Positions 23,531-41,764 of a stretch of 64,000 bases of DNA are shown here, piece by piece; position 1 is the stretch's first letter, and each line of letters opens with the position of its first letter. The DNA comes from Seramator thermalis (GTDB lineage: Bacteria > Bacteroidota > Bacteroidia > Bacteroidales > Dysgonomonadaceae): NCBI RefSeq assembly GCF_004138125.1, contig NZ_RXHS01000002.1:62001-126000 (forward strand), given 5' to 3'. Below the pieces are notes generated by a model. It was not told the DNA's origin. It saw nothing but the letters and a program-made list of their open reading frames with translations, and searched no databases. The position numbers and the translations under genes are program-made.

Positions 23531-23640
23531 TTCTGCATCACTATTAATGCAGAATAAAAGTAGGCTTAATCAGCGTGTTAGCGGTTGGTTTTTTGTGAGG
23601 TGGCAGTGTGTGGCTTCGATTTGGCAGCGTGTGGCGTTGG
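23531..23640 (-). promoter_or_regulatory. topB-operon promoter with 45-bp activator-type box
   Basis: On the minus strand, a box of two 21-bp direct repeats (23640-23596, each containing GCCACNNNCTGCCA) lies 33 bp upstream of a -7-like element TACTTTTA (23562-23555). A perfect 8-bp inverted repeat TTCTGCAT/ATGCAGAA (23531-23554) lies between it and the start codon at 23512 and may be an operator. The same box with the same spacing occurs before mobC, before the tra operon and in traD. Confidence 0.7.
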
Positions 23641-23669
23641 GAATTGATAATTCACCAAAATGGAAGATA

Positions 23670-25583
23670 ATCGAGTAGGTAGGGGGATTACTCCCCCGCC
23701 CTCTCACACCACCCGGCTTGCTCTCGCACCGGGCGGTTTCTTTTAATTGTTTAATCTCTCGTAATTTAATGTGAGGTTGTATAGACCTACTGATTCAAAC
23801 CATTTATTGCTAAGAGCCTGATGTGTTTGGGGGCAACCTGACTTGCGCCAGTGTCCTTTACCCGAGAGAGCTAATATCCAGCTTTGCCAGCTATCAACTC
23901 CCCGACTTTCAAGGAAACGTTGCAAGGTGATTACCCTTTTGCACTGCTTTAACCTGTAGCACCGAAGTTTTCTGCGTATCCATGAATCGAGATTCTTTAA
24001 TAAGCCTTTACATCGGGCATAACGGAAGTAGTTCAGCCAGCCTCGCATAAGGGGTTGCAATTCGGCAATTATTTGCTCAAACTTCACGCCTCTGTTACGT
24101 TTGGTTATACTGCGTACTTTGTCCTTAAAGCGTTCAATGCTTTGCTTTGCTATGGTTAGATAACCATCGATTTGGATGGTGTGACCTAAGAATTTGGTTT
24201 GAAACACTTCGCAAACCTGACTCTTGTCTCTGTTGACAAGTAGTTTTAGTTTGCTATCGATAAAGTTACTTACCGATTCCATTACTCTCTCGCCTGCCAT
24301 TTGGCTGCGTACGTAGATGTTGCAATCGTCAGCATATCGAACAAATTTGTGTCCTCGTTTCTCTAACTCTTTATCCAGTTCATCAAGAACTATGTTGGAT
24401 AATAAGGGGGAGAGAGGACTGCCTTGGGGCGTCCCTTCGATGCGTTGGCTGACAATACCCCCTGTCATGATTCCGCTCTGAAGGTATTTGCGTATCAGCT
24501 TCAAAAGGGTTTTATCCCCAATTTTCTGTGATAACATATACATCAGACGGTCATGATTGACAACGTCAAAGAATGTCTTTAAGTCGATATCCACAACTAT
24601 CATCCTGCCTGTCTGTACGTATTCGCAACCTTTCTTTAGTGCATCATGTGCACTTCGCTGAGGACGGAATCCGTAACTATAGTCAGAAAAATCTCTTTCA
24701 TAGAGAGGGCTTAAGACTTGGGAAATGGCTTGCTGGATAACCCTGTCGGTTACCGTAGGAATGCCCAGCCTGCGTTTACCGCCGTTAGGCTTGGGAATCT
24801 CAACCTGCTTAACGCCTTGGGGAATATATGTTCCCTCACGGAGTTGTGATAGTAAGGATTCGCCATGAGTATGATACCACGTGGCAAATTCATCTACTTT
24901 CATCTGGTCTATTCCTGCTACACCTTTGTTGCGCTTTACCTGTTTGTAGGCTTGGGTGATATTGCTGTGACACAATACCGCTCCCATTAAATCAAGGGTT
25001 AAGGCTCGTTCTTGTTCGCCTGCTTCTTCTACTTGCAACGCCTTTGATGTATTAGCTCGGCTTACGGCTTCACTATCTACACAAGGGCATACAGAATCCT
25101 TGACTGCTAATGTGAACAGGTCTGACTGGTATGCTGTAACTTGCTGTCGCTTCATAGAACAAATTTTGAACTAACTGCTCCTTAAATTAAAAGATTCAGA
25201 CCTTCTTTTATGAGTGTGCACTTCATAAAATACTATGTCTTCTGCTGACTTCTTATAAGACTTAGAATTACATCGCTATAAGTCCTGCACTGTTGGTGCC
25301 TCTTATAAGACCTCTCGGGATAAGATATTAAACTTTCACTGCGTTCTGCCTGATTTACTCATAAGAGTTACGGTTGAAGTTTGGGCGTTCCCAATCCATT
25401 GCTCGGTTGCCCTCCCAAATGAGCCTTATATCAGATTTCTGTGCGTCAGAACCTCAGTTTTGCTGATGGCTTCTTTCAGATTTGCAGTTGCCCGCAACAC
25501 CCTTGCCAGTCGCTAATGTTTCCTATCAACTCGGCACATACAGGAACTTACATCCTGCAAGCTTAATACCATGCCCGACATAC
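23670..25583 (-). mobile_element. group II intron 2 (probably class C), minus strand
   Basis: About 1914 bp. On the minus strand it starts GTATGTCGGGC directly after the TTTTTT of an intrinsic terminator (25584-25616) and ends CTACTCGAT at 23670, the same end as intron 1. The domain V/VI region lies at 23672-23742. Insertion right after a terminator T-run is the known habit of class C introns. The 5' part (25156-25583) is non-coding structured RNA. Confidence 0.82.
23743..25155 (-). CDS. ltrA: group II intron reverse transcriptase/maturase
   Basis: 470 residues with the RT motif series: LGIPTVTDRVIQQAISQVLSP, SYGFRPQRSAHDALKKG, VDIDLKTFFDVVNHDR, EGTPQGSPLSPLLSNIVL and the catalytic VRYADDCNIYV. 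A maturase segment follows (MRGWLNYFRYARCKGLLKNLD). No endonuclease domain is seen. The N-terminal 45 residues extend beyond those of the intron 1 protein. Only moderate identity to the intron 1 protein, so the two introns arrived independently rather than by local duplication. Confidence 0.95.
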   Translation of the reverse strand: MKRQQVTAYQSDLFTLAVKDSVCPCVDSEAVSRANTSKALQVEEAGEQERALTLDLMGAVLCHSNITQAYKQVKRNKGVAGIDQMKVDEFATWYHTHGESLLSQLREGTYIPQGVKQVEIPKPNGGKRRLGIPTVTDRVIQQAISQVLSPLYERDFSDYSYGFRPQRSAHDALKKGCEYVQTGRMIVVDIDLKTFFDVVNHDRLMYMLSQKIGDKTLLKLIRKYLQSGIMTGGIVSQRIEGTPQGSPLSPLLSNIVLDELDKELEKRGHKFVRYADDCNIYVRSQMAGERVMESVSNFIDSKLKLLVNRDKSQVCEVFQTKFLGHTIQIDGYLTIAKQSIERFKDKVRSITKRNRGVKFEQIIAELQPLMRGWLNYFRYARCKGLLKNLDSWIRRKLRCYRLKQCKRVITLQRFLESRGVDSWQSWILALSGKGHWRKSGCPQTHQALSNKWFESVGLYNLTLNYERLNN

Positions 25584-25616
25584 AAAAAACTGCCACCCTT
25601 TGAGGAAAGGTGGCAG
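25584..25616 (-). terminator. intrinsic terminator of the sigma/IrrE operon
   Basis: The stem CTGCCACC/GGTGGCAG (25590-25616) is followed on the minus strand by six T (25589-25584). It lies 33 bases after the stop of the IrrE-like gene. Intron 2 begins at the very next base. Confidence 0.85.
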
Positions 25617-25648
25617 CAAATGTTTTGAAGTGGCTTTAGATATTTATA

Positions 25649-26446
25649 TTATTGCCAAATAATACTTATAGCGATTTTGCCATAATTTGGGAAAATGCAC
25701 TTTTCAAAGAGTTTAATTCCTCTTATGTCATCATATGAGCTAAACCATTCGGAAGCTTCTACAATTTCAGTATCATCACATTTGAGTCCATTATTAAAAT
25801 AATCTCCAGCAACAGTAAGAGGAGGAGTCTTTTTTGACGAATGCTCAATGAAATACTTATATGGGAAATCATTTGATTTCCAACTATATTCAATCATATT
25901 ATCTCTTGAAAAAACTACCATAATAGGGTATGCGTCAATTTCTATATATTTAAGTAATGTCGCAGAAAGACTTGTTCCAAATTCCTTTGTCAACGATTCT
26001 ATCAAAGAAAAATCAAATTTTCGTGTTTGAACAGCTTGTTTAAAACGAGATGTTGGCATTAGTAAGTTTGAAGCGAAATGATCAGCCTCCATTTCTACGA
26101 TATTTTTCCTCTGGAATCTGTAATATGATTTATGCAAAGACTTCCCTTTTTTTAGAGCATTACGATGTTCATCAATAAAAAAATGTCCTAATTCATGAGC
26201 AAATGAAAATCGAAGTCGTGCATTGTCTGTCGATTGAATATTTTGTGTATTCAAATAAACATGAAAATCTTTAGAATCATGTTCTAAAAGACCATCAAAA
26301 CAATCTCCATATTCTCCATAATTATACGTTACACCAGATTTTTCGGCAATGAGTTCTGGCAACACCATACTATGTGGACAATAATCAATAGATATAAATT
26401 CAGCTAATTCAGCTAATTCTTTTTTTCGAGCATTATCTATTGTCAT
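25649..26446 (-). CDS. ImmA/IrrE-family metallopeptidase
   Basis: 265 residues. The zinc-protease signature RFSFAHELGHFFIDEH holds HExxH at residues 84-88, followed by a further acidic segment (MEADHFASNLLMP, about 116-128) with the third metal ligand Glu, the standard ImmA/IrrE arrangement. Family members cleave a regulator and so switch on genes on mobile elements or stress genes. Its start overlaps the preceding small gene by 14 bases and a sigma factor gene lies upstream, so a protease/partner/sigma cascade is plausible but inferred. No helix-turn-helix domain is fused to it. Confidence 0.88.
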   Translation of the reverse strand: MTIDNARKKELAELAEFISIDYCPHSMVLPELIAEKSGVTYNYGEYGDCFDGLLEHDSKDFHVYLNTQNIQSTDNARLRFSFAHELGHFFIDEHRNALKKGKSLHKSYYRFQRKNIVEMEADHFASNLLMPTSRFKQAVQTRKFDFSLIESLTKEFGTSLSATLLKYIEIDAYPIMVVFSRDNMIEYSWKSNDFPYKYFIEHSSKKTPPLTVAGDYFNNGLKCDDTEIVEASEWFSSYDDIRGIKLFEKCIFPNYGKIAISIIWQ

Positions 26447-26774
26447 TCTTCTTTTTCTTAGCTTCTTCTTTATCTCTTTTCATTTTCGCAAGCATATCTT
26501 CTGGGATATCTTTCCCTTCTCTTGCAGCTAATGCCCAATTCCTTTCTCCCTCTGAATTGTCTATTGCAATTACTCTTTTCTTTAGTGTCTGCTTTTTGTC
26601 CTCAAATACAAAATCAGGAGATCCTAATTCTTTGGGCAAAGGAATATAGTCTATATTTTCTTCAAAAACGGACATCTGTTCATCTGTTGTAGGGAATAGG
26701 TACCCATGTGATTTCAGTGCATTTTCAAGATATGCTTCAAAATCCGCATCCTGTATTTTTATTTTTTTTGTCAT
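26433..26774 (-). CDS. small charged protein between sigma factor and IrrE peptidase
   Basis: 113 residues, acidic first half, strongly basic and Lys-rich C-terminus. No recognised domain. The frame overlaps the peptidase start by 14 bases and begins 5 bases after the sigma gene stop, so the three genes are co-translated. By position it could be an anti-sigma or repressor that the peptidase cleaves. Nothing in the sequence proves that. Confidence 0.7.
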   Translation of the reverse strand: MTKKIKIQDADFEAYLENALKSHGYLFPTTDEQMSVFEENIDYIPLPKELGSPDFVFEDKKQTLKKRVIAIDNSEGERNWALAAREGKDIPEDMLAKMKRDKEEAKKKKNDNR

Positions 26775-26779
26775 TGTTG

Positions 26780-27794: not shown

Positions 27795-28490
27795 ATGAAT
27801 GTACATGACGGGGCGCCGGATACGCAAAAAGAAAAAATCCCCTTGAAGTTTGTTATTGAGGGAAAAGAGTATGAAACCTGTGAGCAATACCTGACAGGTG
27901 CAGAGTTGAAGCAATTAGCGGGCATTCCTTTGGAAACCGAATTGTTTCTATCTATTAGTAAGCCGTATAATGACGAACTGATAGAAAACGATACGCGAGT
28001 AAATATAGCAAGACCGGAAACGGAGTATTTTTTTGTGAAAAAGAAATTGCACTTCACTATCAATGGAGTTCCTTTTGTTTGGTACAAGCAATATATCCGT
28101 GGCGTACAAATTCGAGAGTTAGGAGGGATTTCGCATAATGATGAACTATATCTTGATATTCCTGATGGTTGGAACGATGATTTCATTGAAGACGATGAAA
28201 TTGTTGATTTAGCTCGTCCGGGTGCAGAACACTTCATTTCTAAAACCAAACAAAAGGAGTTTAAAATCATAGTAAATGCTCGTGAAAAGGCTTGGTCGCA
28301 GGCTACCATATCTTTTGAACAAGTCATTGTATTGGCATTCGGTTCCTACGACAATAATCCGAATAAGGGTTATACCGTTACTTATAGTAAGGGGCCTAAG
28401 CCTAACAGGGAAGGTTCTATGGTGAAAGGATCAGTTGTTGATGTTAAAAATAATATGATATTCGATGTCACAGCAACTGATAAATCATAG
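27795..28490 (+). CDS. tandem ubiquitin-like (multiubiquitin) protein
   Basis: 231 residues from ATG 27795 (a TTG lies two codons earlier). It has three related beta-grasp units. Residues 16-84 and 85-152 are clear repeats with the same pattern: FxIxGxxxxxxxQYxxGxxxxxLxGI, ELxLxI, ND, xVxxARPxxExF. The third unit (about 155-231) ends MIFDVTATDKS, the usual C-terminal form in the bacterial multiubiquitin family. Such proteins are substrates for bacterial E1-type enzymes, and the ThiF-like gene follows with a 26-base overlap. It is the first gene of the operon. Confidence 0.88.
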   Translation: MNVHDGAPDTQKEKIPLKFVIEGKEYETCEQYLTGAELKQLAGIPLETELFLSISKPYNDELIENDTRVNIARPETEYFFVKKKLHFTINGVPFVWYKQYIRGVQIRELGGISHNDELYLDIPDGWNDDFIEDDEIVDLARPGAEHFISKTKQKEFKIIVNAREKAWSQATISFEQVIVLAFGSYDNNPNKGYTVTYSKGPKPNREGSMVKGSVVDVKNNMIFDVTATDKS

Positions 28491-29637
28491 TCAAGACCTT
28501 AAGCGTCTTAGAGACGAAGGTTACGAAATAGAGGTTCGTGGTGGACATTTACTTGTCCACCATATTCCCTATGTAAGAAGCGATAAGACTATACAGTACG
28601 GAATACTAGTGAGCACGCTTACTTTGAAGAATGGAACCACTACTGCCACTCCTGATAATCATGTTATTTATTTTATTGGAGACAACCCTTGTAATGACGA
28701 CGGGACGATAATAACTGCAATACAACACGATAATTCAGCCAAGAATTTTGGAGGCATAGCAATAAATCGCTCTTTCTCGAATAAGCCTCAGCAAGGCTAT
28801 CCTAATTACTACGAAAAGGTGAAACGGTATGCAGATATTATTTCAGCTCCCGCTAAGTACTCGGATAGTACAGTAACTGAAAAAACGTTCAAAGTCATAC
28901 CTGACAATGCAAATGAAACGGTTTTTCAGTACATTGACACTAACTCAAGTAGAGCAAATATAGACTTGATTAACTCTAAATTTAATGGGCAAAAAATCGC
29001 TATTATCGGGCTGGGCGGAACTGGTGCTTATGTATTGGATTTGATAGCCAAAACTCCTGTTTCCGAAATTCACATTTTCGATGGAGACGACTTCGATCAA
29101 CATAATGCGTTTCGCTCTCCGGGAGCTGCTTCAATTGATGATTTAAATAAGAATCAAAGGAAGGCTGAATATCTTTCCGGTATTTACGCTAATATGCACA
29201 AGCATATAATCCCTCACAGTTATTATGTACTGAAAGACAATATCCAAGAGCTCGACCAAATGTCTTTTGTTTTTATTTGCGTTGATAAAAACAGTGTTCG
29301 TAACATGATAGTTAAGTACTTAATTCACGCAGGCATACCTTGTATTGACGTTGGTTTGGGTGTAGAAACCGTAGATGATAAGTTGCGTGGAGCTACAAGG
29401 GTAACGACTGTAACTAAAGCAAAAAACGACCATTTTTCCACAAGAGTATTTGCAGAAGACAGTGAGAATAACGATTATGTAACAAACATTCAAATAGCCG
29501 AACTCAATTCGCTAAATGCGTGTTTCGCTGTAATCAAGTGGAAAAAATTAATTGGCTTTTATGTTGATCAAGAATGTGAGCACAATAGCATTTTTACGAT
29601 AGGGACTTCAAAAATAATCAACGATGATGCAACATAG
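28465..29637 (+). CDS. ThiF/E1-type adenylating enzyme for ubiquitin-like proteins
   Basis: 390 residues. The C-terminal E1 fold begins near residue 178 with IAIIGLGGTGAYVLDLIAK (nucleotide loop), then HIFDGDDFDQHNAFRSPGA, where Asp binds Mg-ATP and Asn/Arg contact phosphate. Further on is FVFICVDKNSVRNMIVKYL. The first 165 residues form a separate domain (VHHIPYVRSDKTIQYGILVSTL, HVIYFIGDNPCNDDG) that accompanies this E1 subgroup; I believe Pfam calls it DUF6791, and an E2-like role has been suggested for such domains, but I cannot confirm it. It would adenylate the C-terminus of the multiubiquitin protein. It overlaps both neighbours. Confidence 0.87.
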   Translation: MSQQLINHSQDLKRLRDEGYEIEVRGGHLLVHHIPYVRSDKTIQYGILVSTLTLKNGTTTATPDNHVIYFIGDNPCNDDGTIITAIQHDNSAKNFGGIAINRSFSNKPQQGYPNYYEKVKRYADIISAPAKYSDSTVTEKTFKVIPDNANETVFQYIDTNSSRANIDLINSKFNGQKIAIIGLGGTGAYVLDLIAKTPVSEIHIFDGDDFDQHNAFRSPGAASIDDLNKNQRKAEYLSGIYANMHKHIIPHSYYVLKDNIQELDQMSFVFICVDKNSVRNMIVKYLIHAGIPCIDVGLGVETVDDKLRGATRVTTVTKAKNDHFSTRVFAEDSENNDYVTNIQIAELNSLNACFAVIKWKKLIGFYVDQECEHNSIFTIGTSKIINDDAT

Positions 29638-30040
29638 GTTTGTCGAGATTATTCCCGATGCTGTCGAAGATGATGTGTTGTATATTTCTCTGAAATACTG
29701 CACAGCCATACACAAGTGCGTGTGTGGCTGTGGAAATGAAGTGGTTACGCCTATTTCTCCTACGGATTGGAAGTTGATATTCGATGGAAAAACGGTTTCT
29801 TTATCTCCTTCTATAGGCAATTGGAACTTTAATTGTCAATCTCATTACTGGATTAAAAGGAACGAAATCGTTTATGCCAGAGAATGGGATAAAGAAGAAA
29901 TTCAATTCGGCAGGGCAAATGATGAAAAGCGAAAAGCAAAGTATTACAATAAAGAAAATGAGAGCGTTAGTTCTGTTACAAAAAGACCTAAAAAGAAAAA
30001 GAGATGGAAGAAGTTCTTAAAATCAATCTTTTCTTTTTGA
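29624..30040 (+). CDS. DUF6527-type zinc-binding protein of the ubiquitin-like operon
   Basis: 138 residues. The conserved core CVCGCGNEVVTPISPTDW is followed by SLSPSIGNWNFNCQSHYWIKRNEIVYA. This gives CxCGC and C-x-x-H positions that could bind zinc, perhaps as a ribbon. The gene overlaps the E1 gene by 14 bases. This family is repeatedly found next to multiubiquitin and ThiF genes, so it belongs to the same conjugation pathway, maybe as a target, ligase-like or peptidase partner. The basic C-terminus (KRPKKKKRWKKF) could contact nucleic acid or membrane. No JAB deubiquitinase motif is present here or nearby. Confidence 0.8.
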   Translation: MMQHRFVEIIPDAVEDDVLYISLKYCTAIHKCVCGCGNEVVTPISPTDWKLIFDGKTVSLSPSIGNWNFNCQSHYWIKRNEIVYAREWDKEEIQFGRANDEKRKAKYYNKENESVSSVTKRPKKKKRWKKFLKSIFSF

Positions 30041-30334: not shown

Positions 30335-32344
30335 TTATTCCCCTTGCTGTAACAAATGAGCCAACGCAGGGTCATTTTTTATTCGTTCCAATTCTTCGGC
30401 AACAATCTGTTTCGTTTCCTCCTTGATACGGTTATAGTTGAGTTGTATCTGCTCTTTCATCTTATTCTCTCCGTTTTCGTCTGTGAAATCAGTAATTACA
30501 GGAATGGATTGATACGCCTTTGTTTCGGCAGCAACTTTCGCATTATCCACAACGATTTCACAATGGAAAATCTTCTGCTCGATACGTTCATCAAAGTTGT
30601 CAGAAATCGCACCGACAAACATACCTTGTGTAAGATTGGATATTTTGGACGGAGGTATCAGGCTGTCCATTTGGGTACTGATAGAAGTTGATTTATCATT
30701 ACGATTGATGGTCATAGACTGACGTTTTTGTAATACTTTTCCAAAGCGATCAGAAAGCGTTTTGGCTGTTTCGCCTACTACCTGACCGGAGAAAATATTA
30801 CCAACCGTATTCATCACTACTTTCGCTTCCTTGTCGCCGTAATCCCTTGTTAATTGGCTGAAATCTTGAAACCCTAAAAGCACTGCAACTTTATTACTTC
30901 TGGCGGTTGCTATCAGGTTGTCCAATCCTTTGAAGTAAATTGTTGGCAGCTCGTCAATGACTACCGAACTTTTCAGTTGTCCCTTTTTGTTGATTAATTT
31001 CACGATACGAGAGTTGTAAAGTCCCAATGCCGCACCGTAGATGTTCTGCCTATCGGGATTGTTACCGACAACCAACACTTTCGGATCATCAGGATTGTTT
31101 ATATCAAGCGTAAACTCATCGCCACTCATAACCCAGTACAACTGGGGTGAAATCATACGGGATAGTGGGATTTTTGCACTGGCTATCTGTCCCATTAATT
31201 GGTCGGCAGCACCTCCCAACCATGCGTCCATAAAAGGACTAAGATAGTTTTCTAGTTCAGGATATGAGGTGAGAATTGGGAAAATATTTTCATAACGTTT
31301 ATTCAGGAACTCAATTGCATGAGGGAACGTACAATATTTTCCGTTCTGATAAATGCGTAAATACCAAATTATAGAAGCAAACAGAATTATCGGGGATTCC
31401 ACAAAAAAATCGCCTTGTTTTTGCACCCATGTTTTATTGAGATTGAGCATGATTGTGTAGGCACTTTCATAAGCATCGGATATATCCGTCATAAAATCGG
31501 GATTGATCGGATTACAACGGTGTGAACGTGCCGGATCGTCAAAGTTTATCACATAAAAGGTAGGGACTTTAGTATAGCCCATTTGATTGTTCAATAAATG
31601 GTTATAGGCGATTGTAGAGAGATCGGGGAATTTAAAGTCATACACATACATCGAGAATCCTTTCTCAATTTGCTGTTTAATGTACTGATTAACAACGGCG
31701 TATGATTTTCCACTACCCGGAGTACCTAACACAATACTGGCACGAAAAGGATTTACTACGTTTATCCAACCCCGCCATTCCTTTTTCTTGTACCAAAACT
31801 TTGTAGGTAAGTTCACAGAATATTCACTCTGTAATAACCGAGTTTCCTGCATAAAACTCTCGTTCTCTGTGTTGAAAACGTCGTCGAACATATTGTTCTT
31901 GAGCAAACGGCTGATCCATAATCCGCCAACCAATAGGAACAGATAACCTGCTACCATTGTCAGGATATAAAAACCTGTTGTCGCCGATGCGGTTAACGGC
32001 AGGTCGAGTATCCACCAGTTCATAAAGAACAGGATAAAACCTATTGTCAGAAAAACATAGATTTTCGACCAAGTGATTTTTTCCTCTTTAACGCCCTTTA
32101 TCCCCAAACAGGAAAGAGCAAGGAAAACAACGGCAAATAATTTCGTGTAGAGAATATTGCCGAATAATCCGGCAGTCCGATCAAAGTTCAGTAGAATCTT
32201 ATCTACTACTCCGATGTTGATTCCCCATTCTCGAATGGCATAATAGCAAAACCAGTATATGTTCATAACCACGAACAAAATACTGATTGCCCGCATAAAC
32301 TCCATGACTTTAGCAAGTCCTCTTAAATCGTCTTCTTGTTGCAT
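30335..32344 (-). CDS. mobC: MobC, TraG/VirD4-type coupling ATPase
   Basis: 669 residues. Four or five N-terminal membrane helices (about residues 10-165) anchor a cytoplasmic motor. Walker A is LGTPGSGKSYAVVNQ (about 206-213), followed by MYVYDFKFPDLST; Walker B and the sensor region are in KSSVVIDELPTIYFKGLDNLIATARSNKV and LLGFQDFSQLTRDYG. The C-terminus binds no obvious motif. In Bacteroides elements MobC brings the relaxase-DNA complex to the mating pore. Here it is separated from mobB/mobA by 4.6 kb of defence cargo on the opposite strand, although these three are normally adjacent. Confidence 0.94.
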   Translation of the reverse strand: MQQEDDLRGLAKVMEFMRAISILFVVMNIYWFCYYAIREWGINIGVVDKILLNFDRTAGLFGNILYTKLFAVVFLALSCLGIKGVKEEKITWSKIYVFLTIGFILFFMNWWILDLPLTASATTGFYILTMVAGYLFLLVGGLWISRLLKNNMFDDVFNTENESFMQETRLLQSEYSVNLPTKFWYKKKEWRGWINVVNPFRASIVLGTPGSGKSYAVVNQYIKQQIEKGFSMYVYDFKFPDLSTIAYNHLLNNQMGYTKVPTFYVINFDDPARSHRCNPINPDFMTDISDAYESAYTIMLNLNKTWVQKQGDFFVESPIILFASIIWYLRIYQNGKYCTFPHAIEFLNKRYENIFPILTSYPELENYLSPFMDAWLGGAADQLMGQIASAKIPLSRMISPQLYWVMSGDEFTLDINNPDDPKVLVVGNNPDRQNIYGAALGLYNSRIVKLINKKGQLKSSVVIDELPTIYFKGLDNLIATARSNKVAVLLGFQDFSQLTRDYGDKEAKVVMNTVGNIFSGQVVGETAKTLSDRFGKVLQKRQSMTINRNDKSTSISTQMDSLIPPSKISNLTQGMFVGAISDNFDERIEQKIFHCEIVVDNAKVAAETKAYQSIPVITDFTDENGENKMKEQIQLNYNRIKEETKQIVAEELERIKNDPALAHLLQQGE

Positions 32345-32345: not shown

Positions 32346-32458
32346 TTCTTAAAAATTAAATTGTTTAAGAAGCGAAAGTATAGGGGATATGTGAGGTTTT
32401 ATGCAGTTTTGCTTTAGGTGGCAGTATGTGGCTTCGGTTTGGCTGCTTGTGGCACTTG
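32346..32458 (-). promoter_or_regulatory. mobC promoter with 45-bp activator-type box
   Basis: On the minus strand, the box (32458-32414) with GCCACAAGCAGCCA and GCCACATACTGCCA spaced 21 bp lies 33 bp upstream of TACTTTCG (32380-32373), a near match to TAnnTTTG. An inverted repeat TTCTTAAA/TTTAAGAA (32346-32371) lies next to the start codon at 32344. The architecture is the same as before the DUF3945/topB operon, including an inverted repeat at the start. Confidence 0.72.
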
Positions 32459-32558: not shown

Positions 32559-34331
32559 ATGTATATAGAAAAGTTCATTATAAAAAACTTTAGGGGAATT
32601 GCCGATTTAGCTCTTCACTTTAGCAAAGGGCTAAACGTACTTATCGGAGAAAACAACTCCAGTAAAACGGCGATTATTGACGCTTTACGCATCTGTTTAA
32701 GTTACGGTAATCAGAAAAGGGACATTTATATCTCGTATCCTGACTTTCATATAGAAAAAACCGAAATAAGTGATACCCTAAACGATATAGAATTTCACTT
32801 GCATTTTAAAATAGAAGACCCAGCTGAAGCGGGTTGGTTCAACGATTTATTGAGTGTTCAAGAAGACGGAACACAGGATTTGCAATTACATTTCCGCTAT
32901 TATCTTGATGAAGAGGAAAGAATCAGGTATAAGGTATGGGGAGGAACAAATGAAGGACAGGCAATCGCTCCAGAGATCTTAATTCTTTTGTATCATGTTC
33001 ATTTGGACGCATTACGAGATGCAGAAAATCATTTGCGCCCAATCAGGGGAAACCGTTTAGGGCAATTATATGCCAATATTCAAATTGATCCGAACGCTGA
33101 AACCGATAAAGAAAAGAAAAAAGAGATTGCAAAAAAGGTTCGTGAAGCAGTTGATAGTGATACTGATTGGACACAACACATTGGCAAAGGGAAAGAAAAA
33201 ATAAACGAACATTTGAGAGAAACGAGCTTTGCGAGCAAACAACAGCAAGTTGAAATTTTGTTTCTCCCATTTGATTTTAACCGATTAGTAGATAATCTAA
33301 AAATTCAAATGCCTATCTACACTGATGAATTGCTTGAAGGCGATTCATCAAAGCAGAAGCATTTCGAACTATATCAAAACGGACTTGGATATAACAACCT
33401 AATTTATACAGCTACTGTTTTAGGGGATTTGAAACAACGAAAAGAACTCAACAAGGAAAGTTATGCAGCCCTACTTATAGAAGAACCCGAAGCCCATCTA
33501 CACCCGCAACTACAAAATCTTTTCTTTAAATACCTGAATAAACTTGATACGGAGCAAGGATTTCAAATATTCATATCATCACACTCTCCGACAATCACAG
33601 CAAAGTCAGATTTGAAGTCCGTTGTGGTTTTGCAGAATCAGGATAATAAAGTGTCTGCCTTATCTCTTGACAAATCAGGCTTGTCAGGAGATAACCGAAA
33701 ATACTTGCATAAATTCTTAGATGTAACAAAGTCGCAACTATTCTTTTCTAATGGGGTGATTTTAGTTGAGGGTATTTCGGAATCATTACTTCTACCGATT
33801 TTTAGCAAAATTATGGAAGAGAATGGAAAGTACGATATCGAAAGTGCTGGAGTTGAATTAGTCAATTTAAATGGTGTCGCATTCTCTCATTTTGCTAATT
33901 TGTTTAACAATGATGATAATGACAAAAATTTGAAAACAAGATGCTCTTTGATTACCGATGATGATAGAGATAAAGAAACGGACGAAATTGCTTCAAGAGC
34001 AAAGGTAGCCAGTGAACTTGAAAGAAAGAATCTAAAAGTGTTTTTGGCAGAACAAACATTTGAATTTGAACTTTTCATTGCAGGAAACAAAGATATTCTC
34101 ATAGAAATATTCAAGGAAATGCATCCTGTCGCAGCGGGTAGAATTATTGAAAATGCTGACGTAAAAATTCATGCGACAAATTTCTTAGAGAAAGTTATTT
34201 CAAATAAGGCAAAATCAGAATTAGCACATAGATTGGCTGTGAAATTGGCTTCGGACGAAAATGCGAGAAATGCGTTTGTTGTGCCTACATATCTCCAAAA
34301 TGCTATAAAATACGCTACGAAAGGAGAATAA
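32559..34331 (+). CDS. gajA: OLD-family ATPase/TOPRIM nuclease, GajA-like
   Basis: 590 residues. The ABC/SMC-type ATPase has Walker A LIGENNSSKTAI (residues 30-37), Walker B LLIEEPEAHLHPQLQ (about 304-318) and FISSHSPTI. A TOPRIM domain follows: VILVEGISESLLLP (about 401), with Glu for metal binding, and LITDDDRDKE (about 465) with the DxD. This OLD layout with a UvrD-type helicase directly downstream defines Gabija, an anti-phage system whose GajA cuts DNA when nucleotides are depleted. The length is close to the GajA norm. The gene ends 4 bases before the helicase gene. The pair is cargo inserted between mobC and mobB. Confidence 0.87.
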   Translation: MYIEKFIIKNFRGIADLALHFSKGLNVLIGENNSSKTAIIDALRICLSYGNQKRDIYISYPDFHIEKTEISDTLNDIEFHLHFKIEDPAEAGWFNDLLSVQEDGTQDLQLHFRYYLDEEERIRYKVWGGTNEGQAIAPEILILLYHVHLDALRDAENHLRPIRGNRLGQLYANIQIDPNAETDKEKKKEIAKKVREAVDSDTDWTQHIGKGKEKINEHLRETSFASKQQQVEILFLPFDFNRLVDNLKIQMPIYTDELLEGDSSKQKHFELYQNGLGYNNLIYTATVLGDLKQRKELNKESYAALLIEEPEAHLHPQLQNLFFKYLNKLDTEQGFQIFISSHSPTITAKSDLKSVVVLQNQDNKVSALSLDKSGLSGDNRKYLHKFLDVTKSQLFFSNGVILVEGISESLLLPIFSKIMEENGKYDIESAGVELVNLNGVAFSHFANLFNNDDNDKNLKTRCSLITDDDRDKETDEIASRAKVASELERKNLKVFLAEQTFEFELFIAGNKDILIEIFKEMHPVAAGRIIENADVKIHATNFLEKVISNKAKSELAHRLAVKLASDENARNAFVVPTYLQNAIKYATKGE

Positions 34332-34335
34332 TCGA

Positions 34336-36021
34336 ATGTTTAGAACGCTATCAGATAGTCAACGAGAAATTGTATTCAACAAATCAGGAAAATTTGTTGT
34401 GAGAGCCTGTCCGGGTAGTGGAAAAACTTATTGTGTAGGTGCAAGATTAGCTCGATTAATCCATGATTGGAAAAAGAGACATGAGGGAATAGCCGTGCTT
34501 TCTTTTACAAATGTTGCATGGCAAGAAATAGAGAAAAAGTGCAACGAGAAATTTAGTATTAGTAAAATCGCATATCCCCATTTTCTTGGGACTATCGACA
34601 GCTTTGTAAACAAATACATTTTCCTTCCCTTTGGGCATTTAATCTTAGGATGTAAAGGAAGGCCTATTTTAGTTGGTGAACCTCATGGGACTTGGAGTGG
34701 AAAAGACTTTAGTAGCACTCTATTTGACAATATAAGTTACGCTATTGATGGTAGTATGTATGCCATTCAAGCAACAAAAATGAATGCTAATTGGCAGCAA
34801 AACAAATATATTACAGGAGCAAAGAAGCGCTATAATAAAGCGGGGTATGCCACACAAAATGATGCAAACTTTTTTGCGATGAAAATCCTTGAAAAATATC
34901 CTCAAATCGCCAAAGCTATTGCCGTCAGATTTCCTTATTTGATAGTAGATGAAGCCCAAGACACATCTGATATTCAGATGAAAATAATTGATATACTCAT
35001 TGAAAACGGATTGAGTGAAATAATGCTTGTCGGCGATCCAGACCAAGCTATTTTTGAATGGAATGACGCAAGACCGGAATTACTCACTCAAAAATATGAC
35101 GAATGGGAAAACTCCATTATACTGAATGAAAACCGAAGAAGTTCGCAAAATATCTGTGGTTTCACTTTTGGAATTTCTTCTTTGAGTGATGCTTCTGTTT
35201 CTGTAAACGAGCAAGTCCGGGAATTTGCTCATCGACCTAAAGTAATTACATATAACAGCAATTTGCCTCAGATAGTATCTGACTTTATTGATGAATGCCA
35301 GCAACAGGGAATCAATGTGTCTAAAGAATCTACCGCGATAATTTATCGAAGTAAAAGCATCGTTAATGAAATTCTTGGCATTCCTGAAATTACTTTTGGT
35401 ACTAATGTATGGGTAGATAGTCATACGCGAGAATTTGCAAGAGGAAAATTCCTATATGATAACGGGCGTTTCAAAGACGGCTTTAAAATATTGGAGCGAA
35501 TCTTATTGAAAACCTTGAGCAATTTATCTTATTGTTCAGAGGATGATATTAATGATGCAATTGCTCAAATGGGATTTGTTACCTTTAAAAGCCAAATCCA
35601 TGCTTTTATAAATCTGCTTCCTCGAACAAATATTTCTATTGGAGAGTGGGTTGATGCAGCAAACAAGGCTCTAAAAGAAAATAATTGTGGTTTTGAATTA
35701 CGTGTTCATAAAGACGGCTTACGCCTTTCGTTTCCCCAATTATTTTTAAATGAAGACAAACAGATTATTGAGAAAAATTACAGATATGGCACGGTGCATA
35801 GTGTGAAAGGAGAAACATTTGAAGCTGTTCTTTTAATATTGAAGACTAAAGGCATTGGTAGTGCATATAAAACACTACTCAATAAAAATATATCCATTTC
35901 GGCAAGCGAAGAATTAAGAATCGCATACGTTGGAATGACACGACCAAGCAAAATCTTAGTTATTGCAGTTCCCAATGATGATAACAAAAATGCTTGGGAA
36001 AATAAGTTGGTTCGTAATTGA
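34336..36021 (+). CDS. gajB: UvrD-like helicase, GajB-like
   Basis: 561 residues, superfamily 1 helicase. Motif I is VVRACPGSGKTYCV (about 22-35); motif II is LIVDEAQDTSDIQ (from about 202); motif III/IV are LVGDPDQAIFEW and LNENRRSSQNIC; motif V is GTVHSVKGETFEAVLL; motif VI is LRIAYVGMTRPSKIL. The order is complete. It would sense or unwind DNA and activate the partner nuclease. Slightly longer than typical GajB. It starts 4 bases after gajA, so the two are translated together. Confidence 0.87.
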   Translation: MFRTLSDSQREIVFNKSGKFVVRACPGSGKTYCVGARLARLIHDWKKRHEGIAVLSFTNVAWQEIEKKCNEKFSISKIAYPHFLGTIDSFVNKYIFLPFGHLILGCKGRPILVGEPHGTWSGKDFSSTLFDNISYAIDGSMYAIQATKMNANWQQNKYITGAKKRYNKAGYATQNDANFFAMKILEKYPQIAKAIAVRFPYLIVDEAQDTSDIQMKIIDILIENGLSEIMLVGDPDQAIFEWNDARPELLTQKYDEWENSIILNENRRSSQNICGFTFGISSLSDASVSVNEQVREFAHRPKVITYNSNLPQIVSDFIDECQQQGINVSKESTAIIYRSKSIVNEILGIPEITFGTNVWVDSHTREFARGKFLYDNGRFKDGFKILERILLKTLSNLSYCSEDDINDAIAQMGFVTFKSQIHAFINLLPRTNISIGEWVDAANKALKENNCGFELRVHKDGLRLSFPQLFLNEDKQIIEKNYRYGTVHSVKGETFEAVLLILKTKGIGSAYKTLLNKNISISASEELRIAYVGMTRPSKILVIAVPNDDNKNAWENKLVRN

Positions 36022-38188: not shown

Positions 38189-38195
38189 TTCGTTG

Positions 38196-38633
38196 TTATT
38201 TTGCTAAATAATTAGCCTTAAAATCTTCTGATAACTCCTGAATTTTCTTCCCTATTTCGACCAAATCAACGGTAGCTTTTTCTAATTTATAGAGCAAAGC
38301 CAATGCTTTTTTCTCCGAAAAATTGCTGTGCAACTCCTTTACAACTTGGTTGTAATTCACTCCGACGGAGCGGAACTGTGCAAAAAAAGAAGTGAGTTTG
38401 GTAACGTATTCCATAGTGGAACGGTCGATTTTTACAACTCGGAACTCATCGCCAAAGACACGGGCAGCGATAAAACGAGCTTTCGATTGCAATCCTGATT
38501 GCTCAAACATCGTGAGAAATCGGGCGTGTTCTACGGCTGTAAAATTTACCGAGTATCGGTAATTAGCCGGATCATTCTTCGGGGCTCGCCCCCCTTTACC
38601 CCGTTTCGGGGTGTTACTTGCATTTTCATTCAT
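38196..38633 (-). CDS. mobA: MobA mobilisation accessory protein
   Basis: 145 residues. A basic N-terminus (GKGGRAPKNDPANYRYSVNFTAVEHARF) leads into a ribbon-helix-helix-like DNA-binding part. The C-terminal half is helical with the usual motif GVNYNQVVKEL of small relaxosome proteins. It would bind oriT and help MobB. A copy of the CCACTAAAAAA motif sits 5 bases upstream of the start codon. Confidence 0.88.
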   Translation of the reverse strand: MNENASNTPKRGKGGRAPKNDPANYRYSVNFTAVEHARFLTMFEQSGLQSKARFIAARVFGDEFRVVKIDRSTMEYVTKLTSFFAQFRSVGVNYNQVVKELHSNFSEKKALALLYKLEKATVDLVEIGKKIQELSEDFKANYLAK

Positions 38634-38638
38634 ACGTC

Positions 38639-38652
38639 GGATTTTTTAGTGG
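38639..38652 (-). promoter_or_regulatory. recurrent A-tract motif, copy 3, before mobA
   Basis: On the minus strand CCACTAAAAAATCC ends 5 bases before the mobA ATG. It is a shorter copy (six A, tail not conserved) of the motif at 21996, 41862 and 49331. Confidence 0.45.
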
Positions 38653-38725
38653 TACAATCCGTCGTTGCGGTATCCTGCCGCCCATTCAATCATCACTCAA
38701 ATAATTGCCAAAAGCAACCGACTTC

Positions 38726-38802
38726 GGAGGGTGCGCCCTCCCTTGTGGGGCAAGCATTTTTTGCAGCAAAACGGTTTCCGTGCAGCAAAAAATACAGCTT
38801 GC
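38726..38802. other. candidate oriT: nested inverted repeats upstream of mobA
   Basis: GGAGGG/CCCTCC with loop TGCG (38726-38741) is followed by a long imperfect inverted repeat: GCAAGC + ATTTTTTGC (38750-38764) against GCAAAAAAT + GCTTGC (38785-38802). An inner ACGG/CCGT pair lies between the arms. The location between mobA and the first tra gene is where oriT is expected in these elements. No nick site can be identified from sequence alone. Confidence 0.45.
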
Positions 38803-38945
38803 TATTTGCCATGTCGCAAATAAAATCTGCCCTGAACAGGGGCAGATATGAATGCGAGCCGGGCGAGCTAAAATGGCGGTCGATTACCTCCCGACGTTTC
38901 ATGCTGCAAAGTTACAGGCTAAAGTAACGTGCTGTATTCCAGTGA

Positions 38946-39031
38946 GCGAAGCCACTTGCTGCCAAATCGACGCCACTTGCTGCCACCTCGTGAAAAAGTA
39001 GTGTGCAGGAGAAATTTTAGGCGTTTATTTG
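38946..39031 (+). promoter_or_regulatory. tra-operon promoter with 45-bp activator-type box
   Basis: The box (38946-38990) consists of two 21-bp repeats, each with GCCACTTGCTGCCA. A -7-like element TTTATTTG (39024-39031) lies 33 bp downstream. The start of parA/traA is at 39351, leaving a 300-base AT-rich leader. This is the best-conserved copy of the box. Confidence 0.72.
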
Positions 39032-39039
39032 CCCTCGAT

Positions 39040-39345
39040 TTATTACTCGACAGCGTAATTAAACGATGAAGCGATTATAGAATTAATGATTTGAATAATC
39101 GGAAAATCGAATGATTTATAAACAGATTGAGTGATTTTTCAATAGACTGATTTCGTAATGAATTAAATGGGCTGTCGATTAACGAATTAATAAATTGATA
39201 AACTGATAAAGAAATTAATTGATTTAGCAGCAAACCAATCAAGTAAGCAATGCTTCAATCTATTGTCCGACAAAGCAAGCGTTTGATTAACAGACCGACA
39301 GGTCAAGCGATTAATAAAAAAATAAGTTCAACAATTAAAATGTAA
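39040..39345 (+). other. AT-rich leader with repeated GATTnAT words
   Basis: A gene-free, AT-rich stretch in which GATTGA, GATTTA, GATTAA and AATTAATTGATT recur about every 10-15 bp, in both orientations. It lies between the tra promoter and the ParA-type gene. It could be a centromere-like or single-strand-prone region, or simply an unstructured leader. I see no small gene in it. Confidence 0.4.
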
Positions 39346-39350
39346 AGACA

Positions 39351-40103
39351 ATGAAAAAGAAAATTTTGAATGTGGCTTTCTCAACCCAAAAGGGCGGAGC
39401 CGGAAAAACAACTCTTACGGTGTTGGTAGCTTCCTACCTGCACTATGTGAAAGGTTACAACGTAGCCGTGATTGACTGCGACTTTCCGCAACACTCGATT
39501 GCGGATATGCGAAAACGGGATTTGCAAATGACAATGGAAGACGACCATTACAAGCTCATGGCTTACGAGCAATTTTCCTCGCTCGGCAAAAAAGCATACG
39601 TCATTGTAGAGAGTAGTCCCGAAAACGCAATGGAAGATGCCAAAGCAGTGATTGAAGAAATGAATCCTGATTTCGTGTTCTTCGACCTGCCGGGAACAAT
39701 CAATAATCCGGAAGTAGTCAAAACCTTATCGTTTATGGACTATATCATAGCTCCGATCAGCGCCGACCAATTAGTGTTGGAAAGTACCCTGCAATATGTG
39801 GTAACGATTAACGATGCCCTGATTACGCCGGGCAAAGCCAAAATCAAAGGATTGTACCTGCTTTGGAATCTTGTTGATGGGCGGGAAAAGACGGAATTAT
39901 ATGAAGTGTATGAAGATGTGATTGACAAACTGGGTTTTCCGCTTTTCAAAACATTCCTGCCCGACAGTAAACGATTCCGCAAAGAGCAATCGGTCAGCCA
40001 TAAAGCATTGTTCCGTTCAACGCTGTTCCCTGCGGACAAGGTACTGGTAAAAGGCAGTAACCTTGATATTCTGATTGATGAAATGTTGGACACTCTAAAA
40101 TAA
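39351..40103 (+). CDS. traA: TraA, ParA-family ATPase
   Basis: 250 residues. The deviant Walker A FSTQKGGAGKTTLTVLVASYL starts near residue 10, followed by VAVIDCDFPQHSI (Walker A' region) and FVFFDLPGTINNP (Walker B). It is a MinD/ParA-type ATPase and the first gene of the tra operon, as in CTnDOT-type elements. It may position or stabilise the element or the transfer machinery. No ParB gene follows; the small DUF3408 proteins take that place. Confidence 0.92.
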   Translation: MKKKILNVAFSTQKGGAGKTTLTVLVASYLHYVKGYNVAVIDCDFPQHSIADMRKRDLQMTMEDDHYKLMAYEQFSSLGKKAYVIVESSPENAMEDAKAVIEEMNPDFVFFDLPGTINNPEVVKTLSFMDYIIAPISADQLVLESTLQYVVTINDALITPGKAKIKGLYLLWNLVDGREKTELYEVYEDVIDKLGFPLFKTFLPDSKRFRKEQSVSHKALFRSTLFPADKVLVKGSNLDILIDEMLDTLK

Positions 40104-40110
40104 TCAGGCT

Positions 40111-40587
40111 ATGGCAAAGAAGAAAGAAGAAGTGAACTTGAGTGATATTGACGCAAATTTCGTCATTGCTTCATTCAAGAACAAAGACAGGCTGAACAAT
40201 CCGAGTTCCATTCCCAGAGCATTAGTTCCTGAACATGAGAAAAATCAGGAACAGGAAGCAGAACCCGAAGCAACGGTACAACCTGTTGCTATTGTTCAGG
40301 AAGAAACTTCCCGTGAAGAACCAAAGCGTAAGCGAGCCAAATCGCCCGATTACGAAAGCCTGTTTCTTACAGTTGCAGATATACCCACACGAAATGGGAA
40401 ACTGGTCAGTATCCGTGAAAAATACCACAAACGGATAGCAAAGGTTGTGAAAGCACTGGATAAAAAGGATGTTTCCATATTCAGCTATATCGACAATATT
40501 CTGTCGCACCATTTCGACACCTATCAGGACGAAATAAAAGAGATTTATAATAAAGACAAAGAAGACGATGATTATTTAACGCCCTAA
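40111..40587 (+). CDS. traB: TraB, DUF3408-type protein
   Basis: 158 residues. The first 75 are low-complexity and Glu-rich. The second half is a small helical domain (VSIREKYHKRIAKVVKALDKKDVSIFSYIDNILSHHFDTY) typical of the DUF3408 family and suggestive of a ribbon-helix-helix DNA-binding fold. It is 7 bases after traA. Confidence 0.85.
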   Translation: MAKKKEEVNLSDIDANFVIASFKNKDRLNNPSSIPRALVPEHEKNQEQEAEPEATVQPVAIVQEETSREEPKRKRAKSPDYESLFLTVADIPTRNGKLVSIREKYHKRIAKVVKALDKKDVSIFSYIDNILSHHFDTYQDEIKEIYNKDKEDDDYLTP

Positions 40588-40598
40588 AAAACAAATGT

Positions 40599-41018
40599 AT
40601 GATACCCAATCCGATTATTTACAACGATACCACGATAACGATAGGTCTTATCGTGTGTTGCCTCGTGATGCTTGCTGCGGTAATGATACCCAAAGCAATA
40701 AAGTACAGAAAACAAGTGAAGCAAAATGAGAGTGAGAAAGCTGTTCAAGATGAACAGGAAGTAGAAATAACAATAATATCCGAAGAAAAAATGAAAAAGA
40801 AAGAACAAACATTGGATTACCGTAAGACATTTCTTACCGCTCCGAAATTGGAAGACAGAAAGCCTGTATTCATAAGCACGGAAACAAGGGACAGCCTTGA
40901 TAAAATAGCCCGTCGTTTAGGCGACCGGAAAATGAGTGTATCAGGTTTCCTTGAAAACATGGCGAAACACCATTTGGCAGAATACAAAGATGAGGTAAAC
41001 AGGTTATACGAAGAATAA
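40599..41018 (+). CDS. traC: TraC, DUF3408-type membrane-anchored protein
   Basis: 139 residues. One N-terminal membrane helix (IGLIVCCLVMLAAVMIPKAI, about 11-31) precedes a charged linker and a C-terminal helical domain (FISTETRDSLDKIARRLGDRKMSVSGFLENMAKHHLAEY) related to that of the preceding gene. The stop overlaps the traD start by one base. The role in transfer is not known. Confidence 0.82.
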   Translation: MIPNPIIYNDTTITIGLIVCCLVMLAAVMIPKAIKYRKQVKQNESEKAVQDEQEVEITIISEEKMKKKEQTLDYRKTFLTAPKLEDRKPVFISTETRDSLDKIARRLGDRKMSVSGFLENMAKHHLAEYKDEVNRLYEE

Positions 41019-41764
41019 TGGAAAAGATATTCATAACCGTAGTTGTGCTGTATGCCCTTTTCGTTGCAATCTATCTTCTGCGACTGAAAATAGGCAAAAG
41101 GCGAAGAAAGAACATAATCGGCGAAGGCTCGACAATCCAAGAAACGGGGCGGTTGAAGTCGGATATTGTCGGCAAAAGCCAATTCGATTTAAGTGCAGCG
41201 AAGCCACTTACTGCCAAATCGGAGCCACTTGCTGCCAGCTCGCCAAAAATGGAAAATCAGCAAGAAATTCCCGATACATTTGTTCCGCCTAACGAGGTAA
41301 AATCGTCGCCGGAAGTGCCGCAGGAGGAACTGGACGAAGCGTTTTCCGACACTCCGCCTGATGAAGATAACGAGCCGATGGACATAGATTACTCGCTCGA
41401 ATACGAAGCGGACGAAAACGAAGATGAGCCGGAGGATGAGGACGAAGAAGTCGAAGGAACGGCACAAGCCGCACTCGCTTCAGGAGTTCAGTTCGATGAT
41501 TTGGGAAATATGGTTCGCACGGTAAACCGTAAGGATGAAGCCACTCCCGAACAAAAGAAAAAGGCAGGTGATACCCTGTTGGAGATACGGCAGACCGATA
41601 TGTTTGAGCAGGTGGTTTCAGGTAAACCCGATGCAAAGCGAATCGTTACCGACCTGATGGCGGAGAGCCTTTCAGCTTTCTATGAGCGGAAAGATAAGGA
41701 AGCCGGAACAATGGGAAGCGAGAAGAAGGCTCCCGACACTTTTAATATCAGAGATTTCGCATAG
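41018..41764 (+). CDS. traD: TraD, conjugal transfer protein
   Basis: 248 residues. One N-terminal membrane helix (IFITVVVLYALFVAIYLL) is followed by a long acidic linker (DEDNEPMDIDYSLEYEADENEDEPEDEDEE) and a conserved C-terminal part from ASGVQFDDLGNMVRTVN, as in Bacteroides TraD. The coding sequence contains the fourth copy of the 45-bp box (41198-41242), read here as AAKPLTAKSEPLAASS, and a perfect TAnnTTTG after it. Confidence 0.85.
   Translation: MEKIFITVVVLYALFVAIYLLRLKIGKRRRKNIIGEGSTIQETGRLKSDIVGKSQFDLSAAKPLTAKSEPLAASSPKMENQQEIPDTFVPPNEVKSSPEVPQEELDEAFSDTPPDEDNEPMDIDYSLEYEADENEDEPEDEDEEVEGTAQAALASGVQFDDLGNMVRTVNRKDEATPEQKKKAGDTLLEIRQTDMFEQVVSGKPDAKRIVTDLMAESLSAFYERKDKEAGTMGSEKKAPDTFNIRDFA
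41198..41282 (+). promoter_or_regulatory. internal promoter in traD with 45-bp activator-type box
   Basis: The box (41198-41242) has GCCACTTACTGCCA and GCCACTTGCTGCCA 21 bp apart. TACATTTG (41275-41282) is an exact TAnnTTTG match 32 bp downstream. A transcript from here would begin inside traD and carry traE onward. The box is conserved although it lies within coding sequence. Confidence 0.65.

What the first reader, a model, noticed from the sequence alone, without database searches (positions are those of the whole stretch)
23555..41282. A 45-bp direct-repeat box lies 32-33 bp upstream of a -7 element at four sites: an ICE transfer regulon
The box consists of two 21-bp repeats with the core GCCACNNNCTGCCA. 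Copies are at 23640-23596 (-), 32458-32414 (-), 38946-38990 (+) and 41198-41242 (+). The distance to the -7-like element (TACTTTTA, TACTTTCG, TTTATTTG, TACATTTG) is 33, 33, 33 and 32 bp. Two copies also share an 8-bp inverted repeat beside the start codon. The 21-bp period puts both repeats on one DNA face. This fits a dimeric activator that switches on topB, mob and tra together. The regulator is not identified in the window.
Basis: seen in the sequence. Interest (0 to 1): 0.75.

Follow-up and report, generated by a model that had tools for sequence, protein, structure and literature searches.

The report
Shared switch for element transfer genes
A mobile DNA element of gut-type bacteria carries the same four-part docking site in front of its transfer operons and beside its integrase gene, which suggests that one small excision protein both frees the element and switches on its transfer machinery.

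Summary
All four boxes and their -7-like elements are where stated; 100 shuffles of the window gave none. A fifth copy lies 2.7 kb left of the window, before DUF1896/BmhA. Related Bacteroidales ICEs keep the box at the same promoters: in 54 of 54 non-redundant promoters TTT starts 42 or 43 bp after the box, and no -33 TTTG is seen. The box is really four G(C/A)CA half-sites at 1, 11, 22 and 32. A sixth array with this spacing (GCCA/GACA/GCCA/GACA) lies beside the integrase start, 200 bp from the tRNA-Asp attachment end; with at most one mismatch these six are the only matches in the 2.98-Mb genome. Other ICE families use other half-site words at the same tra positions, some with the -7 exactly 10 bp nearer. 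Best explanation: the sites are read by the ICE's own excisionase-like winged-helix proteins (an HTH_17 pair beside an RteC-like gene, 14-17 kb left of the window), resembling BldC, RdfS and Xis in fold, coupling excision to transfer. The principle (excisionase as activator) is known from CTnDOT.

The parts
23601..23635 (-). Box 1 (four GCCA half-sites at 1/11/22/32) upstream of the DUF3945-TopB operon
   Evidence: this class has 13 non-redundant representatives, the window's own included
23555..23562 (-). -7-like element TACTTTTA of box 1 promoter
   Evidence: TTT at +42 in 13 of 13 representatives of this class
23531..23554 (-). 8-bp inverted repeat TTCTGCAT-N8-ATGCAGAA just downstream of the -7
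   Evidence: arms change together in some relatives (TTACGCAT..ATGCGTAA)
22022..23512 (-). DUF3945/DUF4099 protein, first gene behind box 1
19890..21992 (-). TopB, topoisomerase III (Exc-like)
32419..32453 (-). Box 2 upstream of MobC
32373..32380 (-). -7-like element TACTTTCG of box 2 promoter
   Evidence: class TTT at +42 in 15 of 16, the sixteenth at +43 (54 of 54 at 42 or 43)
30335..32344 (-). MobC, coupling protein
   Evidence: NF041326
38951..38985 (+). Box 3 in the mobA-traA intergenic region
39024..39031 (+). -7-like element TTTATTTG of box 3 promoter
   Evidence: class TTT at +43 in 8 of 8
39351..40103 (+). TraA, ParA-like ATPase
40111..41018 (+). Two DUF3408 proteins that look like ribbon-helix-helix proteins (read by eye); rival box readers
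41203..41237 (+). Box 4, inside the DUF4122 reading frame
41275..41282 (+). -7-like element TACATTTG of box 4 promoter, also in coding sequence
   Evidence: class TTT at +42 in 9 of 9
41018..41764 (+). DUF4122 gene; downstream lie TraE, TraG and the rest of the tra operon to about 51.4 kb
62182..62216 (+). Integrase/att-side array GCCA/GACA/GCCA/GACA with the same 1/11/22/32 spacing
60670..62178 (-). Tyrosine integrase of the ICE
62416..62490 (-). tRNA-Asp whose 3' end marks the likely right end of the ICE (the left end was not located)

Best explanation
The box is a promoter-activating array of four direct half-sites G(C/A)CA, one helical turn apart, for a small winged-helix excisionase-like protein encoded by the ICE itself (HTH102, HTH119, or both). 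The protein binds head to tail along one DNA face, ending some 38 bp upstream of a -7 element that lacks a -33, and recruits RNA polymerase to the DUF1896-BmhA, DUF3945-TopB, MobC, TraA and DUF4122/tra transcripts. The same protein binds the matching array beside the integrase gene and attachment end to direct excision, so that excision and transfer start together. Shown: sites, geometry, conservation, spacing, co-occurrence of the proteins in most elements read, predicted fold. Inferred: which protein binds, that binding activates, and that it directs excision.
For: 54 of 54 non-redundant boxed promoters have TTT at +42/+43; other adjacent position pairs average 2.2, maximum 10. TTTG at -33-like positions (10-25 after the box): 0 of 54. 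The degenerate four-half-site pattern (at most 1 mismatch) hits 6 places in the 2.98-Mb genome, all in this ICE; the reversed control hits 0. An integrase-side array with the same 10/11/10 spacing is exact in 11 of the 30 integrase loci fetched (7 distinct sequences) at a fixed 2-4 bp from the predicted start; of 216 spacings tried the next best was exact in 1 of 30, or 8 of 30 with one mismatch against 15 of 30. The HTH_17 pair was found in 14 of the 19 regions read. In two families the order is HTH119-HTH102-DUF3945-TopB, which matches the CTnDOT excision operon (recalled). Foldseek for HTH102: BldC-DNA, RdfS, RacA and Pukovnik Xis fill most of the first twelve ranks, rmsd 1.3-2.7 A. BldC binds direct repeats head to tail and RdfS oligomerises and links excision with transcription (PMC5859096, PMC11963761; passages read). 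Where spacing is 10/10/10 instead of 10/11/10, the -7 of the tra promoters is 10 bp nearer with one exception, keeping helical phase, and both HTH_17 proteins are of a distinct sequence type. Box 4 is held at the DNA level: synonymous differences 0.115 in the box against 0.28-0.35 upstream and 0.17-0.22 downstream.
Against: No binding or expression data. Sequence similarity to BldC is weak (E 0.0084 and 0.048) and no Foldseek E-value reaches 0.001; the top-ranked hit of HTH119 is HlyU. In 5 of 19 regions read no HTH pair was found, among them G022 and G026 with 60 kb each, and in G012 the pair lies with a neighbouring element, not with the A-type copy. The Prevotella-type element G020 keeps the A-type box although HTH119 is only 36% and HTH102 43% identical. 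Xis2d of CTnDOT binds a dyad, not direct repeats (recalled). GACAA words also recur in the att region, so the GACA half of the integrase-side array could be integrase arm sites. No array was found upstream of the HTH genes themselves. 15 of 30 integrase loci, all with integrases at most 61% identical, lack the integrase-side array at that place.
Confidence: 0.6

Rival explanations
1. DUF3408 proteins (ribbon-helix-helix-like, encoded next to the ParA-like TraA between box 3 and box 4) bind the box, as ParG/omega-type proteins bind direct repeats (recalled), for autoregulation and possibly partition of the excised circle.
For: They lie between two boxes, next to a ParA; the C-terminal sequence looks like strand-helix-helix (read by eye); four sites about 10 bp apart would suit RHH dimers. 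DUF3408 was found in 24 of 25 boxed genomes searched.
Against: Among elements with the same box the RHH half is swapped or diverged (DUF3408b 28-48% identical; DUF3408a strand KLVSI against KSVYI) while TraG is 95-96%. It does not explain the array beside the integrase.
Confidence: 0.1
2. One reading: the RteC-like protein, a protein of the element not examined here, or a host factor.
For: An RteC-like gene lies next to the HTH pair. RteC controls CTnDOT excision and transfer genes (PMC1976400, passages read). The HTH pair was not found in 5 of 19 regions.
Against: RteC-like homologues were detected in only 4 of 19 regions (own, G018, weakly G005 and G016; the query is a short protein). The pattern occurs only inside the ICE in the window's genome, against a general host regulon. 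Different ICEs in one genome carry different dialects (G012, G273, G302), which does not suit one host factor.
Confidence: 0.16
3. The same protein binds but represses or silences these promoters (a lock that is released on induction).
For: RdfS represses its own promoter while activating intS (PMC11963761, passages read). The integrase-side array starts 4 bp upstream of the integrase start codon.
Against: Boxes sit upstream of the -33 region at fixed helical phase and the promoters lack a -33, the layout of activation, not of blocking the core promoter.
Confidence: 0.08
4. The arrays are not promoter elements but structural sites (oriT accessory, partition or recombination sites).
For: One array lies beside the attachment end, and box 3 is in the mob-tra region where oriT is expected (recalled).
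Against: Five of six are in one orientation relative to a downstream gene and fixed to a -7 element.
Confidence: 0.06

Closest known systems
CTnDOT excision/transfer control (RteC -> Xis2c, Xis2d, Exc -> mob and tra; details recalled)
   Same: RteC-like gene next to two HTH_17 excisionase-like genes; topoisomerase III (Exc-like) and a DUF3945 gene in the regulon; in two relatives the order HTH119-HTH102-DUF3945-TopB; array in the mob-tra region. PMC9956884 (passage read) states that CTnDOT excisionases moonlight as transcription factors.
   Different: The site is a direct-repeat array, whereas the Xis2d site is a dyad (recalled from Hopp 2015; paper not held). Here topB, mobC and DUF1896-BmhA have box promoters of their own. 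In the window's element the HTH genes flank a Toprim/AAA protein and are not in the topB operon.
RdfS of ICEMlSymR7A (8DGL)
   Same: Winged-helix RDF of an ICE that binds att and promoters, activates and represses transcription, oligomerises (PMC11963761 abstract and passages); close in fold to HTH102.
   Different: The authors found no consensus motif for RdfS; here the site is a sharp, readable motif shared by five promoters and one att-side site.
BldC of Streptomyces (6AMA, 6AMK)
   Same: MerR-like winged helix that binds direct repeats head to tail (PMC5859096 passages); best profile match of both proteins and best fold match of HTH102. Its whiI-opt site CAATTCGGACAATTCGGACA resembles the GCCAATTTCGGACAA of some integrase-side arrays.
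   Different: 9-bp repeats, developmental regulator, not on a mobile element.
Bacteroides housekeeping-sigma promoters (-7 TAnnTTTG, -33 TTTG; motif recalled)
   Same: -7-like element present.
   Different: No -33; activator array instead.

Membership tests
CTnDOT-type excision/transfer regulatory module | paired small HTH_17 excisionase-like genes | tested here: met
   window's element; 14 of 19 regions read
CTnDOT-type excision/transfer regulatory module | xis2c-xis2d-orf3-exc gene order (recalled) | tested here: inconclusive
   met in relatives G338 and G020; in the window's own element the HTH genes are far from DUF3945-TopB
CTnDOT-type excision/transfer regulatory module | RteC | tested here: inconclusive
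   PF09357 E 2.4e-7, over cut-off, but over the C-terminal third of the model only
CTnDOT-type excision/transfer regulatory module | rteA/rteB two-component pair, tetQ (recalled) | not tested
   not searched for
CTnDOT-type excision/transfer regulatory module | Xis2d site of dyad symmetry between mob and tra (recalled) | tested here: not met
   the site here is a direct-repeat array
BldC/RdfS/Xis direct-repeat winged-helix proteins | MerR-like winged-helix fold | tested here: met
   models with core pLDDT 84-89; Foldseek probability 0.98-1.00 to BldC and RdfS
BldC/RdfS/Xis direct-repeat winged-helix proteins | significant sequence homology | tested here: inconclusive
   E 0.0084 (HTH102) and 0.048 (HTH119) to BldC
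BldC/RdfS/Xis direct-repeat winged-helix proteins | cooperative head-to-tail binding of direct repeats | not testable with these tools
   needs EMSA/footprint
Bacteroides housekeeping promoter (recalled motif) | -7 element | tested here: met
   TTT at the fixed place in 54 of 54; full TAnnTTTG only in part of them
Bacteroides housekeeping promoter (recalled motif) | -33 TTTG | tested here: not met
   0 of 54 at positions 10-25 after the box
ParA with RHH partition system (DUF3408) | RHH DNA-reading strand constant where the site is constant | tested here: not met

The most novel reading that the evidence does not exclude
Bacteroidales ICEs use a two-letter code of GCCA and GACA half-sites read by a mixed filament of two excisionase paralogues: uniform arrays (GCCA x4 or GACA x4) fire promoters, alternating arrays (GCCA/GACA) mark the attachment end for excision. 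Each ICE family has its own dialect and spacing, so several ICEs can live in one genome without cross-activating each other. (Some families already have mixed promoter arrays, which a strict form of the code would not allow.)
Probability: 0.18. Interest if true: 0.78.

Novelty: new variant of a known kind. Interest (0 to 1): 0.62.

Why it matters
A 2025 review (PMC12632263, passages read) says that numerous Bacteroidales ICEs lack regulators like those of CTnDOT and that their control is open. Here is a sharp sequence motif that lets one read off, from sequence alone, the transfer regulon of a widespread ICE family, names the likely regulator, ties excision and transfer to one protein, and offers a natural series (dialects, one-turn shifts, an intragenic promoter) for testing how the protein contacts RNA polymerase.

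Tried and rejected
DUF3408 as reader was my first idea and was given up after the RHH halves proved swapped among elements with the same box. A test of whether HTH119 or HTH102 alone tracks the dialect was not decisive: element G005 (GCCA arrays) has HTH119 at 77% against 55% in the 10/10/10 families while HTH102 (61 against 57-64), primase (70 against 68-71) and TraA (61 against 56-58) are nearly level, but the Prevotella-type element goes against it. An unbiased search for repeats at every lag from 12 to 35 in 39 loci gave no clean peak at 20/21; lags 12, 16, 24 and 32 also scored, from AT-rich iteron-like repeats nearer to traA and from coding sequence, so the dialects rest on pattern and position, not on that scan. 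A lone box in L101 has no ICE gene behind it and was left as a probable remnant. Genome-contig hits in GC-rich Actinobacteria, Proteobacteria and others were taken as chance or coding repeats and dropped: one search printed only loci under 52% GC, and the counts use only boxes with a recognised downstream ICE gene and full flanks. The 8 viral-contig hits were dropped because none had a recognised ICE gene behind the box. Searches for a published box in the paper library found none in their listings; the library lacks most subscription papers, and the CTnDOT papers PMC3809561 and PMC4600444 are not held.
Full report
Observation. The two-repeat pattern with up to 3 mismatches has 4 matches in the window and none in 100 shuffles. 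In the whole genome (2.98 Mb, 39 contigs; the window is contig 22, 62001-126000) a fifth copy lies 2.7 kb left of the window.

Genes. Pfam and NCBIfam give: box 1, DUF3945 protein and TopB; box 2, MobC coupling protein; box 3, TraA (ParA) and two DUF3408 proteins; box 4, DUF4122 and the tra operon; box 5, DUF1896 and a 1902-residue protein that I call BmhA (name recalled; its family was not searched). The element ends on the right most likely at tRNA-Asp, 62416-62490; its left end was not located (one search found no second copy of the tRNA end in the 114 kb read).

Features outside the window, in coordinates counted from it: box 5 at -2737..-2703 (-) (G000:C22:59263-59297); RteC-like protein at -17156..-16737 (+) (L129:18844-19263); HTH119 at -16616..-16257 (+) (L129:19384-19743); a 680-residue Toprim/AAA protein at -16294..-14252 (+); HTH102 at -14239..-13931 (+) (L130:1761-2069).

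Conservation. A scan of one genome per species found 115 stretches. Those from Bacteroidales ICEs place the box before the same genes: 101 boxes with a recognised gene and full flanks, the window's own included, 70 distinct, 54 after removing those at least 90% identical. TraA behind them goes down to about 50% identity and DUF4122 to 26%. In all 54 the TTT of the -7 starts 42 or 43 bp after the box; other pairs of positions average 2.2 and reach 10. TTTG at -33-like positions: none of 54. In the window's family 19 of 101 genomes, its own included, have the looser pattern with at most one mismatch; the reversed control scored one hit in 101.

Intragenic box. Box 4 is inside an open DUF4122 frame in 29 of 29 loci (several loci are duplicates, and four frames run off the end of the locus). 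In 12 distinct close sequences synonymous differences among identical residues are 0.115 in the box, 0.28-0.35 upstream and 0.17-0.22 downstream, although the protein is less conserved in the box (0.72) than upstream (0.77-0.84). The DNA itself is under constraint.

Geometry. Written as G(C/A)CA at 1, 11, 22 and 32, the pattern with at most one mismatch occurs six times in the genome: five promoters and one site at 62182-62216, directly upstream of the integrase start. Of the integrase matches in the family, 30 loci were fetched. In these the 10/11/10 spacing is exact in 11 (7 distinct sequences), with one mismatch in 3 more and two in 1 more at the same place. The other 15, all with integrases at most 61% identical, show nothing at that place; one of them (L315) has a one-mismatch hit elsewhere. 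All 216 spacings from 8 to 13 were tried; the next best was exact in 1 of 30, and with one mismatch 8 of 30 against 15 of 30.

Dialects. Around other TraA homologues (39 loci, identity 31-84%) the same positions carry other arrays: GGACA at 10/10/10; mixed GACA/GCCA at 10/10/10; GCCAACCAGTGCCA twice; GCCACAAATACGCA twice; and degenerate forms. By my count over these of 39 loci had an array by at least one criterion and 16 had none or only a two-mismatch candidate (L231-L233). With 10/10/10 arrays read in register, the TTTG of the tra promoters is at 32, one turn nearer, in every locus printed except L236, which has it at 43. The DUF3945 promoters of such elements keep it at 43 (G282, G250, L290) or have TTT at 42 (G273). 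Some genomes hold elements of different dialects (G012, G273, G302).

Who reads it. Among the ORFs of this element that are conserved in other boxed elements and that I checked against Pfam, the proteins with a transcription-factor-like domain are two HTH_17 proteins and, by eye, the RHH-like DUF3408 proteins. The HTH pair was found in 14 of 19 regions read, 84-100% identical among the A-type elements compared. It was not found in G013 and G014 (20-40 kb pieces), G021 (cut at DUF3945), or G022 and G026 (60 kb each, in which TopB and BmhA were not found either); in G012 it belongs to a neighbouring element. DUF3408 domains are swapped among elements with the same box. AlphaFold models (mean pLDDT 74 and 76) have a well-defined winged helix. 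Foldseek ranks BldC, RdfS, RacA and Pukovnik Xis high for HTH102; for HTH119 BldC is fourth and RdfS eighteenth, while HlyU is first. The profile of HTH102 finds BldC at E 0.0084. BldC binds direct repeats head to tail; RdfS oligomerises, binds att and promoters and both activates and represses transcription (PMC5859096, passages; PMC11963761, abstract and passages). PMC9956884 (passage) says that CTnDOT excisionases moonlight as transcription factors.

Verdict. A real, conserved cis-regulatory system. The most likely reader is the ICE's excisionase pair; which of the two, and whether both, is open. The principle is known from CTnDOT and RdfS; the motif, its five-promoter regulon, the matching integrase-side array, the intragenic promoter and the dialects were not met in the searches listed in Tried and rejected.

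Noticed in passing
window 32559-36021: OLD-type ATPase/TOPRIM protein plus UvrD-like helicase, a Gabija-like defence pair (label recalled), inserted between mobB and mobC.
   Followed up: no
window 40599-41018: DUF3408b has an N-terminal transmembrane-like helix (by eye) fused to an RHH-like domain; the RHH half is exchanged between otherwise similar elements.
   Followed up: partly
window 28465-30040: DUF6791/ThiF (E1-like) protein with DUF6527 neighbour, a possible ubiquitin-like cargo or defence pair.
   Followed up: no
window 17572-19646 and L130:13481-15502: Two IS91-type transposase plus tyrosine recombinase pairs in opposite orientation flank a cargo block (P-type ATPase, Fur-like and other genes) between box 5 and box 1.
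   Followed up: no
window 14284-15996 and 23743-25497: Two group II introns with reverse transcriptases; the second lies directly upstream of box 1.
   Followed up: no
window 52551-55406: Bacterial PH-domain protein, weak Sec7-like protein and a caspase-family peptidase in a row.
   Followed up: no
L041, L045, L092: Tra-region proteins 97-100% identical to the window's in other assemblies (Proteiniphilum OKU4, Bacteroidales 45-6), which suggests recent transfer.
   Followed up: no
window 23531-23554 and L130:13193-13216: Hairpin/palindrome at the expected transcript start of the DUF3945 and DUF1896 promoters; arms covary in some relatives, so a second operator or a 5' RNA hairpin.
   Followed up: partly
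L255, L257-L261 upstream of traA: Recurring GGGCAAG..CTTGC structure with inner 19-bp repeats about 430-670 bp upstream of traA, a likely oriT.
   Followed up: no
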